Below, piece after piece: positions 39,388 through 45,086 of a stretch of 64,000 nucleotides of DNA; position 1 is the stretch's first letter, and the number at the start of each line of letters is the position of its first letter. This DNA comes from Streptomyces rimosus. Lineage in GTDB: Bacteria > Actinomycetota > Actinomycetes > Streptomycetales > Streptomycetaceae. The stretch spans positions 5,067,001 to 5,131,000 of the forward strand of contig NZ_CP023688.1 of the NCBI RefSeq assembly GCF_008704655.1, given 5' to 3'. A program made the translations under genes and the position numbers. Below the pieces are notes generated by a model. The model ran no database searches. It had not been told where the DNA came from and worked only from the letters and a program-made list of their open reading frames with translations.

Positions 39388-40626
39388 ATGGTGGGGAAAC
39401 TGGCACCGGCGGTGGGAGACGGCGTGGCGGGGACAAAGACGGCGGAGGTCGCGGCGGGGGCCCGGGTGGCTCCTGTGGCCGGTGGGGGCGGGGCCGCGCG
39501 GTTGCCCCTGCTGGATGTGCTGCGCGGTGTCGCGATTCTCGGGACGTTGATGACCAACGTCTGGATCTTCGCGGCGCCCGGCGCGGAAGCGGGCGTCCTG
39601 AAGGGCGGCGCCGCCATGTCGGTGTCCGACTCGTCGTGGTCGGGGCTGGCGGAGGGGGCCTTCCGGTTCCTCGCGGACGGCAAGTTCCTGTCGATGCTGA
39701 CGATGCTGTTCGGCGTCGGCCTCGCCATCCAGTTCCGGTCCGCCGCCAAGCGCGGCCGCACATGGCCCGGCCGCTACAAGTGGCGGGCGCTGTTCCTCTT
39801 CGTCGAGGGCACCGTCCACTTCGTCCTCGTCTTCGCGTGGGACGTGCTGATGGGGTACGCGGTCGTCGCGCTCCTGGTGGCCTGGCAGTTGACGCGTACG
39901 GCACGTACGCAGCGGGTGCTGATGGCGGTGGCGGGCGGCGTGCACGTGGTGGTGCTGGCGCTGCTGACGGCCGCCGCGCTCGGCAGGTCCTCCAACGGGA
40001 GCGGCGGGGCCAGTGCCGAGGCCGTCGCGCTGTACGCCGAGGGCAGTTATCCGGAGCAGATCGCGTTCCGTCTGCACAACGCGGTCGGCCTGCGCATCGA
40101 GCCCGTCGTCTCGTTCGCCCTGCTGGTCTTCCTCTTCCACCTCGGAGTACGGCTGTTCCGCGCGGGCGCCTTCGCCGCGGACGCGAACGGGCGGCGCATC
40201 CGGCGGCGGATGTGCGTCTGGGGCCTGGGCATCGGCCTTCCGCTCAACGTCCTTACAGCGGTGGCCGGTTCGGACTTCTATCTGCTGGGCCGGTACGGTG
40301 CGGCCCCCGTCGTCGCGATCGGCTACGTGGGCCTCATCGGCCTGATCGTCGACCGTGTGCGCCGGCCCGGCCCGCTCACCGCGGGGCTCGTCGCGATCGG
40401 CCGTACGGCGCTGTCCTGCTACGTCCTCCAGAACGTGCTGTGCATGCTGGCCTGTTACGGCATCGGCCTCGGCCTGGCCGCGCGCTGGGCGGACCACGGG
40501 CCGTGGTGGGTGATGGGCCTGTGGGCGGTGGTGTGCGTGGTGCTGTTCACCGGGGCCCGGCTGTGGCTGCGGCATTTCGAGCACGGGCCGCTTGAGACCG
40601 TACAGAAGCGGCTGCTCCGGTCTTGA
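39388..40626 (+). CDS. DUF418/YeiB-like polytopic membrane protein
   Basis: 412 aa, about ten membrane segments. LLDVLRGVAILGTLMTNVW and the C-terminal GLVAIGRTALSCYVLQNVL ... RHFEHGPLETV are the DUF418 hallmarks, related to membrane acyltransferase folds. Start uncertain: ATG 39388 or GTG 39391; the first 38 residues are low-complexity. No good ribosome site. Its end overlaps the convergent HTH gene by 80 bp. Function unknown. Confidence 0.87.
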   Translation: MVGKLAPAVGDGVAGTKTAEVAAGARVAPVAGGGGAARLPLLDVLRGVAILGTLMTNVWIFAAPGAEAGVLKGGAAMSVSDSSWSGLAEGAFRFLADGKFLSMLTMLFGVGLAIQFRSAAKRGRTWPGRYKWRALFLFVEGTVHFVLVFAWDVLMGYAVVALLVAWQLTRTARTQRVLMAVAGGVHVVVLALLTAAALGRSSNGSGGASAEAVALYAEGSYPEQIAFRLHNAVGLRIEPVVSFALLVFLFHLGVRLFRAGAFAADANGRRIRRRMCVWGLGIGLPLNVLTAVAGSDFYLLGRYGAAPVVAIGYVGLIGLIVDRVRRPGPLTAGLVAIGRTALSCYVLQNVLCMLACYGIGLGLAARWADHGPWWVMGLWAVVCVVLFTGARLWLRHFEHGPLETVQKRLLRS

Positions 40627-41773
40627 GGTGGTGGGGCGCCTGGACGTTGCGGAGCGCGGACGGGCGCTGCGGCGCCGGAGGTTCCTCCTCGGCCGCCGGC
40701 TGCTGCGTACGGCAGGCACGGCAGCGCGTCACCGGCGGGTCCTGGCTTCCGGGCGGGGCCGGGTCCACGAAGGGACGGTCGCAGCCTGTGCAGCACACCC
40801 GGACGGGTGCGGGCCCGGCGGACCCCGGCGATGTGCCGGGCACCACGGGATGGACGGGAAGCGGCGGCGGCAGCCACTCGGTGAGCCGGTGCTCCAGGAG
40901 CGCGGCCGGGCGGAAGATGGTGCCGAGGGGCAGGGCCGAGGCGAGCGTACGGACGATGTTCGCGGGCGGTACGCCACGGTCGAGCCATTCCACCACCGCC
41001 GGGGCCAGCCGGCTCACATCGCGCACGGAGAGCGTCAGCCGCGCGTCGACGAGACGGAGGGAGGCGAGGAGGTCGGTGGCGGGGGTGGGGATGAGGGCGG
41101 GGGCCGGGGCGGGGGAGTGTTCGGGGTGGGGATCGGGTGCGGATTCGGGGCCGGGGCCGGGCTCGGGGGCGGGCTCCGGGGCGGGCTCCGGCGTATCCAC
41201 AGGCTGTGGGCGGGGCGCGGGCGGTGGCTCGTCCGGTAGGGGGTCGTCCGGTGGGGGCTCGTCGGGTGGGGGCTCGTCCGGTGGGGGCTCGTCCGGTGGA
41301 GGTTCGTCCGGCGGCGGCTCCTGGGGTGGCGGCTCCTGCGGCGGGGCCGGGGGCGGCTTGTCTCCCGCGGGCTCGGGCGGCCGGGGCGTCGGTAGCGGCT
41401 GTGTACCCGGCTCCGGGCGCGTGCCCGGGTGCTCGTAGTACGTGGTTCGGGTGACGATCCGCTGGCCGGGAGCGCGCTCGCGGCGGCGCTCCAAGTAGCC
41501 CGCTACCTCCAGCTCCTTCAGGGCCCGCGCGATCCGGTACTCCGTCTCCGGCAGCTGCATGGAGAGCGCCCGGATGCTGACGTGGGCGCCGTCGGCCAGG
41601 GCCTGGATGCGTACGGCGAGGCCGATGGCGACGGCGGAGAGCGTCGGGTGGAGGGCGAGGTGATTGCCGACGACGGTGAAGTGGGTGTCGTGGCGGTGCC
41701 GAACGTGGGTCACGCCGGTGGGCGACACGGCAGCGGGCGGGCAGGGCCGCGCGTTAGACTCGGATCGAGTCAT
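40547..41773 (-). CDS. Helix-turn-helix protein with proline-rich repeat region
   Basis: 408 aa. Residues 25-115 form a winged-helix region (LAVRIQALADGAHVSIRALSMQLPETEYRIARALKELEVAGYLERRRE), typical of Streptomyces regulators that test marker by marker. A repeat of EPPPD units follows (about 150-185), then a Pro/Ala/Glu region, a helical domain (RDVSRLAPAVVEWLDRGVPPANIVRTLASALP) and a possible zinc ribbon (CCTGCDRP ... CRACRTQ). The last ~26 codons overlap the DUF418 gene, so the true stop is right but the C-terminal tail may be functionless. Role unknown. Confidence 0.78.
   Translation of the reverse strand: MTRSESNARPCPPAAVSPTGVTHVRHRHDTHFTVVGNHLALHPTLSAVAIGLAVRIQALADGAHVSIRALSMQLPETEYRIARALKELEVAGYLERRRERAPGQRIVTRTTYYEHPGTRPEPGTQPLPTPRPPEPAGDKPPPAPPQEPPPQEPPPDEPPPDEPPPDEPPPDEPPPDDPLPDEPPPAPRPQPVDTPEPAPEPAPEPGPGPESAPDPHPEHSPAPAPALIPTPATDLLASLRLVDARLTLSVRDVSRLAPAVVEWLDRGVPPANIVRTLASALPLGTIFRPAALLEHRLTEWLPPPLPVHPVVPGTSPGSAGPAPVRVCCTGCDRPFVDPAPPGSQDPPVTRCRACRTQQPAAEEEPPAPQRPSALRNVQAPHHLKTGAAASVRSQAARARNAAATAGPR
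41227..41345. repeat. 15-bp tandem repeats coding for PPPDE units
   Basis: About seven units based on GGCTCGTCCGGTGGG, in frame, encode the EPPPD repeat of the HTH protein. Head-to-tail with no unique spacers; likely variable in copy number between strains. Confidence 0.75.
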
Positions 41774-42109: not shown

Positions 42110-43345
42110 CTACAGCGTGGTCACCCCCGGCCGTACCATCGCCCGCCGCCGCGGCGCGCTGAGCAACTGGGCCCCCGCGGGGCACGGCACCGAGGCGTAA
42201 TTGCGGTTCATCTGGTTCTGGAGCTGTGCCCGGCGGCTGCCGGTCGTGCGCGGGTGGTGTGCCTCTTCGTACAGCTTCGAGCTGCGTTTCTGGGCGGCCT
42301 GGCTCTTCGGCGTGTGGAACTGAAGCTCGTACGGGTGGCCCGAATTGTTCGCCCGCCAGGCGGTATTGATTCCCTTGTATCCCCGTGCGCGCGCCCACGT
42401 GTTGGACCAGCGCAGGTTCGCGTTCTTCCACTTGGCCAGCATCTTGGTGCTGTCCTTGACGCCCTTGACATACGACGCGTCCGGCCACTGGAGGATGTAG
42501 CGCACCGAGTTGTAAACCTTGTCCAAGGCATCGTCCATGGTCTCGGACGGGTTGTTCTGCATATCGCGCGCGACCGAGCGCTTGATGGATTCCGGGGACC
42601 GTTTGCGCTCGTTGAAACCGACCATGGTGGCCTTGGTCTTACGGGCGAGACTGCGCACCTGGGGGCTGATGGTGCGTTCGGCCTTCTTGGCGCGCGCGAG
42701 GAAGACATTGACCTTGCGCAGGTCGGCGGCGTCGATGGTGAGCCCTTGCCAGCTCCAGCCGTGGTCCGCCTTGAGCTGCTTCTTCTTGGCCGGCGGCTTC
42801 GTCGTGGAGGGCGGCTGTGTCGACGGCTTCTGGGAAGGCGGCTTCTTCGTACCGGGCCGGCACGGCGGACAGGCCGCCGGCCGCCCGCCCCCCGGCTTCA
42901 TGGCGGCCTGCTTCTTCGGACGGGGCTTCTTCGCGGCCTCCTTCTTGGGCCGCGGCTTTCTCGGCATCTGCTTCTTCGCGGCGGGCTCCTTCGCCGCGGT
43001 TTTCCCAAGCGCGGACTGGCACGGCGGGCAGCCTGCCGGCCGCCCGCCCGACGGCTTCCTTACGGCCTGCTTCTTCGGACGCGGCTTCTTCGCAGCCTGC
43101 TTCTTGCGCCGCGGCTTCTGCGGAGCCTGCTTATTGGCGGCGGGCTTCTTCGCGGCGGGTTTCTTGGCGGCGGGCTTGCCGGCGGACGGTGTCGGGCAGC
43201 TATCGGCGGACTTCTGCCTGCCCTTGGACTGGGGGCAGGGGAGGTCGGTGGCGTGCACCGGTCCCAGGCTGAGGGCGGAGACAAGAGCGGTCGCCGTCAC
43301 CGACCAGGTGACGGCCCGAAAAGTATGAGCGCGGCGGTTTCTCAT
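42110..43345 (-). CDS. Secreted protein with Lys-rich stalk and RelA/SpoT-like pyrophosphokinase domain
   Basis: 411 aa. Sec signal peptide with cleavage after residue 32 (VHA|TD). Residues 55-190 are a Lys/Pro/Ala stalk built from units such as AAKKPRPKKQAA, with two GGRPAxCPPC motifs (CPPC at 106-109 and 159-162). Residues 195-390 resemble the RelA/SpoT (p)ppNpp synthetase fold: RYILQWPDASYVKGV, then ARGYKGINTAW (322-330 region) and ELQFHT (340-345), the counterparts of GYRSxH and ExQIRT. The closest known theme is the extracellular ATP nucleotide 3'-pyrophosphokinase of Streptomyces. Asn279 stands where an Asp is usual in D-x-x-R-Y by eye alignment. Flanked by its own terminator; ATG has GGAAG 11 nt upstream. 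Confidence 0.75.
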   Translation of the reverse strand: MRNRRAHTFRAVTWSVTATALVSALSLGPVHATDLPCPQSKGRQKSADSCPTPSAGKPAAKKPAAKKPAANKQAPQKPRRKKQAAKKPRPKKQAVRKPSGGRPAGCPPCQSALGKTAAKEPAAKKQMPRKPRPKKEAAKKPRPKKQAAMKPGGGRPAACPPCRPGTKKPPSQKPSTQPPSTTKPPAKKKQLKADHGWSWQGLTIDAADLRKVNVFLARAKKAERTISPQVRSLARKTKATMVGFNERKRSPESIKRSVARDMQNNPSETMDDALDKVYNSVRYILQWPDASYVKGVKDSTKMLAKWKNANLRWSNTWARARGYKGINTAWRANNSGHPYELQFHTPKSQAAQKRSSKLYEEAHHPRTTGSRRAQLQNQMNRNYASVPCPAGAQLLSAPRRRAMVRPGVTTL

Positions 43346-43626: not shown

Positions 43627-44445
43627 CTACAGGACGCGGACCGCGCCGGTCGGCTGGCTGTAGCTCAGCGGCTTCTCCACGATGCCGGTGCTGGAGTTCT
43701 GGGCACCGATGAAGTTGCCGTTACCGACGTAGACGGCCACGTGGTACGCGCTGCCCGCGCTGCCCCAGTAGAGGATGTCCCCGACCTGGAGGTTGCTCAT
43801 GCTGACCTGGGTGCCGGCGGTGGACTGCGGCTGCGAGGTGCGCGGCAGGTCGATGCCGATCGTCCGGTAAGCGGCCTGGACCAGGCTGGAGCAGTCGTAC
43901 GCGGACGGGCCGGAGGCGCCCAGCACGTAGGACTTGCCGATCTGCGCGCGCAGGAAGCTGACCAGGGAGGCGGTGCTGCCGGTCGCGCCGGTGACGGGGG
44001 AGTCGTCGGACGACGCGGACATGGCGCGCAGCGACGTGCGCTCGGAGGAGCGGGAGGCGCGCTCCTGGGCGGCCTTCTCCTCCTTGGCCTTACGGGCCTG
44101 TTCGGCCTTCTTCTCGGCCTCGGCCTTGCGGTCGGCGTCGGCCTTCGCCTTGGTGGCGGCCTCGGTGGCCTGGGTGGTGGCGGTGTCCTGCGCGGCCTGC
44201 AGCTCGTAGTCGAGTGCCATCTGCTGGGCGGTGTCCGCGCTCTTGGCCAGGCTGGTGCTGAGTGCCGAGGTGATGGTCGGCATTTCCTGGGTCTCGGAGA
44301 CGGGCTTCTCCGCGGCGCCGGCCGGCATGCTCGCGCCGGTCACCGCCAGGGTGATGATGCCACCGGTGACCCCTGCGCGCAGTGCCCGCGAGGACGCGGA
44401 ACGGCGGGGCTTCCGGTGGCTGGGTATGGCTGCGTTCGGGGACAT
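43627..44445 (-). CDS. Secreted NlpC/P60 (C40) cell-wall peptidase
   Basis: 272 aa. N-terminal export signal (GVTGGIITLAVTGASMPAGAA). Residues 65-135 are a long coiled coil (ATKAKADADRKAEAEKKAEQ). The C-terminal C40 domain has catalytic Cys185 (SAYDCSSLV), His235 (SAYHVAVYVG) and a third polar residue in GAQNSS. It cuts D-gamma-glutamyl bonds of peptidoglycan. ATG at 44445 or GTG at 44469; neither has a good ribosome site. It sits beside nuoA, as in other Streptomyces. Confidence 0.9.
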   Translation of the reverse strand: MSPNAAIPSHRKPRRSASSRALRAGVTGGIITLAVTGASMPAGAAEKPVSETQEMPTITSALSTSLAKSADTAQQMALDYELQAAQDTATTQATEAATKAKADADRKAEAEKKAEQARKAKEEKAAQERASRSSERTSLRAMSASSDDSPVTGATGSTASLVSFLRAQIGKSYVLGASGPSAYDCSSLVQAAYRTIGIDLPRTSQPQSTAGTQVSMSNLQVGDILYWGSAGSAYHVAVYVGNGNFIGAQNSSTGIVEKPLSYSQPTGAVRVL

Positions 44446-45086
44446 GGCACCACGGCTATCAGGAGCCACAGGTTGCTGCCAACAAAGGTGGCGTGCACCA
44501 CACTTGACGCGTACACGGTGAATAAAAGGGACTAATCGCCGGTCGCGAGCCGGGCGGTGGCCTGTCCGAATTTCGTGATCATGTTCCTGCGCATGGCATT
44601 TACGGGCCGGTGCGGGCCCCGGAGGCGCTTACCACCAACTGATCCGCCATGCCAAGGCTTCCCGAGGGTCAAGCGTTCAAGACCGTGAGGCGCGTGGGAT
44701 AGCTCACTCCTGAGTGCCCGTTATGTACCCGTGATGTCGCCGGGGCGGGTGTGCTCGTGAACGCGGGCACGTACCGATGATCACGGGACGGTCACAACGG
44801 TCTCGGGGTGGTCACGGTGGAGCGGGTGGGGTGCCCCTCGCCCAGTGGCCCGCGGTGCCTTATCAGTTGGCGGCGACCGGCGCCAATTTGCTTGCATCCC
44901 GTACCACTTGATAGTGGCAACCCCTCGCTGACCAGGGGTTACGCCGCGAAATATCACCTCTGGTGATCATCCGCGCGCTGCCCGTACGAAGATCGGCGCT
45001 CATCGGACAGGATGACCGGCCGTCAGGTGGTGGAGATCACAAAGGCGTTGTCGCACCCCGTGTCGCAGATCACAGACCAGCGGGCA

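What the first reader, a model, noticed from the sequence alone, without database searches (positions are those of the whole stretch)
42110..43345. Secreted alarmone-synthetase-like protein on a Lys/Pro/Ala stalk
Seen: signal peptide, ~135-residue Lys-rich repeat stalk, C-terminal domain with GYKGINTAW and ELQFHT motifs. Established: RelA/SpoT synthetases use GYRSxH- and ExQIRT-type motifs; a Streptomyces extracellular ATP nucleotide 3'-pyrophosphokinase and interbacterial (p)ppApp toxins show such domains can be exported. Inference: this may be an exported enzyme or toxin that consumes ATP outside or inside neighbouring cells, with the cationic stalk binding cell wall or nucleic acid. The stalked form is what looks new.
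Basis: partly seen in the sequence, partly recalled or inferred. Interest (0 to 1): 0.75.

Follow-up and report, generated by a model that had tools for sequence, protein, structure and literature searches.

The report
Stalked secreted synthetase with altered active site
A Streptomyces rimosus-group bacterium appears to secrete a relative of a known alarmone-making enzyme on a long positively charged stalk, but key parts of its active site have been replaced, so it may bind nucleotides outside the cell rather than make alarmones.

The parts
42110..43345 (-). whole gene, 411 aa: signal peptide, cationic stalk, synthetase-fold domain
   Evidence: orthologues at the same locus
43250..43345 (-). 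Sec-type signal peptide, residues 1-32, VHA before the presumed cleavage
   Evidence: inspection; hydropathy; aligned in relatives
42770..43249 (-). Lys/Pro/Ala stalk, residues 33-192, net charge +43, 6 Cys
42859..43163 (-). 159-nt (53-codon) tandem unit, 1.9 copies, 85% matching, makes up most of the stalk
42113..42769 (-). exported-alarmone-synthetase-like domain, residues 193-411
42599..42601 (-). codon 249: Arg where the RSH R-x-K-x3-S-x3-K motif has Lys (SaRelP Lys80)
   Evidence: Arg in 20 of 20 distinct stalked, Lys in 146 of 147 others
42575..42577 (-). codon 257: Ser where the motif has its second Lys (SaRelP Lys88, contacts ATP phosphates)
   Evidence: Ser/Ala in 20 of 20 stalked, Lys in 145 of 147 others; register by spacing and by a weak hhalign match to the genome's own RelA-type protein
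42509..42511 (-). codon 279 (AAC, Asn) at the SaEAS D121 / SaRelP Asp107 metal-ligand position
42500..42502 (-). codon 282: Arg kept (SaEAS R124)
42356..42382 (-). GYKGINTAW, residues 322-330: presumed acceptor-base Tyr323 and Asn327 (SaEAS N169), both kept
42311..42328 (-). ELQFHT, residues 340-345: Glu340 and Gln342 (SaEAS E182, Q184), both kept
43627..44469 (-). neighbouring NlpC/P60 peptidase, conserved neighbour, then the nuo operon from 45091 (+); context only

Best explanation
The gene makes a protein exported by the Sec pathway. A ~160-residue polycationic stalk holds it on anionic material outside the cell (wall polymers or extracellular nucleic acid; inferred). Its C-terminal domain has the small-alarmone-synthetase fold, but its ATP-donor and metal site has been changed: Lys249 to Arg and Lys257 to Ser/Ala in the ancestor of the stalked forms, then Asp279 to Asn in the S. 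rimosus line (and separately in the S. chrestomyceticus line). The acceptor Tyr, the second metal ligand Glu and the fold are kept. So the window copy is most likely a pseudo-synthetase: dead or nearly so in pyrophosphate transfer, kept by selection for a binding role, most plausibly capturing guanine nucleotides or alarmones at the cell surface. Shown by sequence: export-type N-terminus, stalk, fold, residue changes, constraint, orthology. Inferred: inactivity, tethering, ligand.
For: Fold and kin. SaEAS D121A is inactive (PMC12691689); its position maps to residue 279 by the alignment (the chain offset +35 also lands on R124, K154, N169, E182 and Q184, and the crystallised mutant has Ala at that place). 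Census of 172 rows: Asp in 147 of 147 non-stalked, Asn in 13 and Asp in 12 of 25 stalked rows; among 20 distinct stalked proteins Asn in 11. Lys257 is Ser/Ala in 20 of 20 distinct stalked and changed in 2 of 147 others, and those two (L029, L031) have also lost Glu340 and Gln342. Ten more distant Streptomyces homologues have Asp279 in 10 of 10, Lys257 in 10 of 10 and Lys249 in 9 of 10 as aligned (L048 is gapped there). ATP-phosphate and Mg roles of these positions in SaRelP: PMC5794853, passages. Two separate Asp-to-Asn changes; one Asn clade rejected, p-AU 0.0008, a group named after the census was seen. Two Asn-type proteins (P0006, P0017) also changed Asn327, no Asp-type stalked one did. 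Purifying selection in the Asn line, dN/dS 0.26, 0.31 and 0.42, upper bounds 0.46-0.70. NlpC and nuo neighbours in all four other stalked genomes examined.
Against: Nine of 20 distinct stalked orthologues keep Asp279, so the clade as a whole may not be inactive. Arg282, Asn327, Glu340 and Gln342 are intact in the window protein. Lys249 to Arg is mild; Arg at the K154 position occurs in 49 of 147 other homologues. Asn can weakly hold a metal (general knowledge), and SaEAS-like turnover (about 100,000 per minute) leaves room for large losses. The dN/dS intervals of Asn and Asp pairs overlap, and three columns vary only in Asp-type proteins against six only in Asn-type, so relaxed pocket constraint is weakly shown. 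The Lys257 mapping rests on motif spacing and a weak hhalign match (E 0.06). I found no binding or tethering data.
Confidence: 0.58

Rival explanations
1. A working but slowed or re-specialised exported synthetase: Asn279 and Ser257 lower the rate or change the pyrophosphate donor, and the stalk keeps the enzyme at the surface where lysis releases nucleotides.
For: Most pocket residues are kept; nine distinct stalked orthologues keep Asp; purifying selection; five of 18 stalked database entries carry the name ATP nucleotide 3'-pyrophosphokinase in a source (P0005, P0007, P0010, P0014, P0018), a name given by homology.
Against: Asp279 is invariant in 147 of 147 non-stalked rows and its Ala mutant in SaEAS is inactive; Lys257 and Lys249 are changed too; Asn327 is lost in two Asn-type proteins.
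Confidence: 0.22
2. The domain is a leftover scaffold and the gene's use lies in the stalk: a secreted polycation that binds wall polymers, extracellular DNA or competitors' surfaces.
For: Net +43 stalk and +24 domain against -4 to +10 for the mature parts of four non-stalked relatives checked; weak Pfam HC2 histone-like match (E 1.7e-4, 22.2 bits, below its cut-off of 40).
Against: The domain is far more conserved than the stalk, whose length varies, and keeps Tyr323 in 19 and Glu340 and Gln342 in 20 of 20.
Confidence: 0.1
3. Neutral decay: the gene lost its use and is drifting.
For: Repeated change of active-site residues; two Asn-type proteins have further changes.
Against: Open frame and signal peptide in the five genes whose DNA was read and a kept locus; dN/dS well under 1; both Asp losses went to Asn and are shared by 8 and 3 distinct proteins.
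Confidence: 0.06
4. An interbacterial toxin that enters neighbouring cells, the cationic stalk helping entry.
For: Related domains are toxic in the cytoplasm and occur on secretion-system proteins (PMC12691689).
Against: Changed catalytic residues; no immunity gene recognised beside it; extracellular SaEAS showed no effect on B. subtilis, S. venezuelae or S. coelicolor in that paper.
Confidence: 0.04

Closest known systems
SaEAS of Streptomyces albidoflavus (PDB 8vx3; mBio 2025, PMC12691689)
   Same: Sec signal peptide; same fold, 46% identity over 205 residues; no adjacent immunity gene; Streptomyces.
   Different: The signal-peptide-free SaEAS construct begins at G36, so there is no room for a stalk; it has Asp121 and both motif lysines and is a proven fast enzyme. 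The window protein has Asn279, Arg249, Ser257 and a 160-residue polycation.
ATP nucleotide 3'-pyrophosphokinase of Streptomyces (database name; S. morookaensis activity as cited in PMC12691689)
   Same: A source gives this name to five of the 18 stalked entries and to most of the 120 listed homologues.
   Different: The name rests on homology; I found no activity test of a stalked member, and the active site is altered.
Small alarmone synthetases RelP and RelQ (6fgk, 5dec, 6ewz)
   Different: Cytoplasmic, complete active sites (PMC5794853 passages), 11-13% identity.
Tas1/Apk1 type VI effector (6ox6)
   Different: Delivered by type VI secretion, has an immunity protein, active-site residues matching SaEAS (PMC12691689).
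XopAD/skwp type III effectors (NCBIfam NF041399)
   Same: Their C-terminal domain matches residues 212-393, E 2.5e-22, 78 bits against a cut-off of 2000.
   Different: The model is 2133 positions long; only this last domain is shared.

Membership tests
Exported alarmone synthetases (EAS) | SYNTH fold related to SaEAS | tested here: met
Exported alarmone synthetases (EAS) | export signal | tested here: met
   sequence of residues 1-32, hydropathy and its presence in relatives; no signal-peptide program was run
Exported alarmone synthetases (EAS) | complete catalytic residue set (SaEAS D121, R124, K154, N169, E182, Q184) | tested here: not met
   Asn at D121; Arg at K154 (found in 49 of 147 others); other four kept
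Exported alarmone synthetases (EAS) | R-x-K-x3-S-x3-K ATP-phosphate motif | tested here: not met
   R-x-R-x3-S-x3-S
Exported alarmone synthetases (EAS) | makes (p)ppGpp or (p)ppApp | not testable with these tools
   needs enzyme assay
Exported alarmone synthetases (EAS) | Sec-type members lie alone, without immunity gene | tested here: inconclusive
   neighbours are DUF418, an unassigned ORF, NlpC/P60 and nuo genes, kept in relatives; small ORFs were not searched for immunity function
RelA_SpoT Pfam PF04607 | score over the curated cut-off | tested here: not met
   no match; own-genome search at E <= 1 finds only two other loci
toxSAS toxins | cognate antitoxin or immunity gene beside it | tested here: inconclusive
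   none recognised; dedicated search not made
toxSAS toxins | intact catalytic site | tested here: not met
Histone H1-like HC2 (PF07382) | score over the curated cut-off | tested here: not met
   22.2 bits against cut-off 40; 12 of the 18 stalked entries carry the label precomputed in the protein database

The most novel reading that the evidence does not exclude
A lineage of Streptomyces turned a fast, potentially toxic secreted alarmone synthetase into a surface-tethered binding protein for extracellular guanine nucleotides or alarmones, by first changing ATP-phosphate contacts and then, twice, the metal-binding Asp, while keeping the acceptor pocket: a secreted alarmone receptor or sponge, and so a candidate receiver for extracellular alarmones, whose purpose is unexplained.
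Probability: 0.25. Interest if true: 0.82.

Novelty: new variant of a known kind. Interest (0 to 1): 0.55.

Why it matters
Exported alarmone synthetases were described in 2025, and that paper leaves the role of SaEAS open; its authors imagine surface receptors or import of the products. A syntenic set of orthologues in which some keep and two lines have lost the catalytic Asp, on a polycationic stalk, is a natural experiment: it separates binding from synthesis and makes the receptor question testable. If the window copy proves active instead, it shows that a metal ligand invariant in 147 of 147 relatives is dispensable, which is also worth knowing. It also warns that the homology-based name ATP nucleotide 3'-pyrophosphokinase may be wrong for part of this clade.

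Tried and rejected
Rejected: (1) that the stalk is a mistranslated or antisense artefact; frame, GC3 and orthologues speak against it. (2) That Arg at the K154 position is a sign of inactivity; it occurs in 49 of 147 other homologues. (3) That the stalked protein guards against an active paralogue in the same genome: the four stalked genomes searched (G000, G036, G048, G337) show one match each at E 1e-5, and G000 one at E 10. (4) Spontaneous Asn-to-Asp deamidation as a maturation switch: Asn279 is followed by Ser just before a predicted strand; possible in principle, no evidence, not scored.

Led nowhere: PADLOC, no match at E 1; PHROGs matched a head-morphogenesis family, E 1.1e-10, and an unknown one, E 6.7e-7, which would fit the phage MuF fusions described in PMC12691689; the genome-contig scan gave only three loci; the third protein search gave no stalked protein beyond those (its two new rows P0141 and P0142 were not put in the census); paper searches for a pseudoenzyme form, a catalytically inactive SAS with magnesium, pyrophosphokinase names and RelP structures gave no paper, one on lysine-rich secreted histone-like proteins gave one unrelated paper; the word SaSAS matched 287 papers, of which the 20 listed are unrelated. 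hhalign of the EAS alignment to the genome's own RelA-type protein is weak (E 0.06) and was used for register only.

Limits: only the 8000 candidates sharing most words were scored, and of 243 hits the best 120 listed were used. 'Non-stalked' was measured for those 120 (at most 9 Lys+Arg in the stretch before the domain) and for 27 locus rows (at most 5 Lys and 9 Arg in the 60 residues before the domain, against 12-16 Lys in stalked rows). P0005, P0007 and P0018 begin inside the stalk as annotated and were counted as stalked by their place in the tree. Duplicate rows: P0006 = L004 = L032; P0009 = L005 = L033 apart from the annotated start; P0011 = L034. L035 holds an in-frame TAG and was kept in the 147. 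dN/dS used five genomes and a simple counting method. No DNA of the second Asn line was at hand, so it has no dN/dS.

Full report
What is there. The ORF at 42110-43345 on the minus strand is intact and encodes 411 residues. Residues 1-32 have the make-up of a Sec signal peptide (inspection; the most hydrophobic windows of the protein lie at residues 11-30). Residues 33-192 form a stalk with 36 Lys, 11 Arg, 33 Pro and 25 Ala, net charge +43, built largely from a 159-nt unit in 1.9 copies. The stalk has GC3 of 0.89, like the domain, and orthologues carry a stalk of different length in frame. The window protein has 7 Cys; 18 of 19 stalked database rows have an odd number (mostly 5; P0019 has 6; three rows are short at the start), while 113 of 120 non-stalked ones have none. 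An odd number might allow disulfide-linked dimers; this is inference. The genome is a 9.36-Mb chromosome in one contig; the nearest named proteins are from S. rimosus.

The active site. The alignment with a chain offset of 35 places the SaEAS residues named in the paper at window residues 279 (D121), 282 (R124), 312 (K154), 327 (N169), 340 (E182) and 342 (Q184). The window has Asn279, Arg282, Arg312, Asn327, Glu340 and Gln342. I aligned 172 homologous domains: 25 rows of the stalked group and 147 others (120 of the 243 hits, and 27 loci). Residue 279 is Asp in 147 of 147 others; in the stalked rows it is Asn in 13 and Asp in 12, or Asn in 11 and Asp in 9 of 20 distinct proteins. Arg312 means little, since 49 of 147 others have it. 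In SaRelP, ATP phosphates are held by Lys80, Lys88 and Arg91 with Ser84, the metal by Asp107 and Glu174, and a G-loop Tyr151 is critical for guanosine binding (PMC5794853, passages only). The EAS family has the same spacing R247-x-K249-x3-S253-x3-K257, as does the RelA-type protein of the same genome, and hhalign puts them in that register though with a weak score. All 20 distinct stalked proteins have Arg at 249 (Lys in 146 of 147 others), Ser or Ala at 257 (Lys in 145 of 147; the two exceptions, L029 and L031, have also lost Glu340 and Gln342) and Ile at 284 (Thr in 147 of 147). Ten more distant Streptomyces homologues, 30-44% identical, have Asp279 in 10 of 10, Lys257 in 10 of 10, Thr284 in 10 of 10 and Lys249 in 9 of 10 as aligned, though Arg247 is Ser in three and L048 is gapped and degenerate. 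Tyr323, which I equate with the G-loop Tyr by motif, is kept in 19 of 20 stalked, and Glu340 and Gln342 in 20 of 20.

History. In a tree of 48 rows built without column 279 (checked), the 20 stalked proteins form one side of a branch with support 100/100; Asp to Asn needs two changes, one in the S. rimosus group (8 proteins) and one in the S. chrestomyceticus group (3), and a single Asn clade is rejected (p-AU 0.0008). Codons are AAC in three Asn-type genes and GAC in two Asp-type genes. The stalked genes of the four other genomes examined (G036, G048, CB02923, S. monomycini) lie next to NlpC/P60 and the nuo operon; three of them also have DUF418 and the FAD-dependent reductase gene on the other side, the fourth contig ending before. 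So Asp and Asn forms are orthologues. Of 392 Streptomyces genomes searched, 38 have a homologue at 1e-5, and 4 of these a match of 79-100% identity, that is a stalked one. Among columns that are at least 98% fixed in 144 non-stalked rows and kept in all nine Asp-type stalked proteins, the Asn-type ones vary at six (243, 248, 279, 323, 327, 360); the reverse test finds three columns varying only in Asp-type proteins. This is mild support for relaxed constraint on the pocket, not a strong test. dN/dS of the domain is 0.26, 0.31 and 0.42 in Asn-Asn pairs and 0.19 in the Asp-Asp pair, with overlapping intervals: the protein is under purifying selection.

Mechanism. Shown: coding, stalk, fold, residue replacements, two changes of Asp, one locus, constraint. 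From published work: Asp and Glu hold the metal and the lysines hold ATP phosphates in SaRelP, and Asp to Ala is inactive in SaEAS. Inferred: the window protein transfers pyrophosphate poorly or not at all; the polycation tethers it to anionic polymers outside the cell; the kept acceptor pocket binds guanine nucleotides or alarmones. I put the combined reading at 0.58 and its boldest part (receptor or sponge for extracellular alarmones) at 0.25. The chief rival is a slowed or re-specialised enzyme (0.22).

Novelty. The paper searches I made cover open-licence PMC papers only. I saw in them no account of a stalked or catalytically altered exported synthetase. The supplements of PMC12691689, which list 152 Streptomyces homologues, could not be opened, so this clade may be among them. 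Two stalked proteins (P0008, P0009) are named 'histone H1-like repetitive region-containing protein' in public databases and five of 18 'ATP nucleotide 3'-pyrophosphokinase' in a source. I call it a new variant of a known kind.

Noticed in passing
window 42113-42769 and loci L034, L036-L038: Synonymous divergence of the domain is several times that of most flanking genes (window against CB02923: dS 0.65, versus 0.13 NlpC, 0.20 GGR, 0.12 nuoB; DUF418 0.41), suggesting old alleles, recombination or codon-bias differences at this locus.
   Followed up: partly
L029, L031, L048: Three non-stalked Streptomyces homologues also look catalytically degenerate (Glu340 and/or Gln342 replaced, other pocket residues lost), so loss of activity may be recurrent in this family.
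   Followed up: partly
window 42770-43249: 18 of 19 stalked database rows have an odd number of cysteines, in the window in pairs such as CPPC in the stalk plus one near the C-terminus; 113 of 120 non-stalked relatives have none.
   Followed up: partly
window 40547-41773: Minus-strand 408-aa ORF with a Pro/Glu/Asp repeat (PPPDEPPPDE) has no Pfam match, yet its first ~120 residues are matched at 63-88% identity beside the stalked gene in 3 of 4 relatives.
   Followed up: no
protein P0001, residues 186-381: Match to PHROG 7625 'head morphogenesis' (E 1.1e-10), perhaps a phage head protein carrying this kind of domain as a fusion.
   Followed up: no
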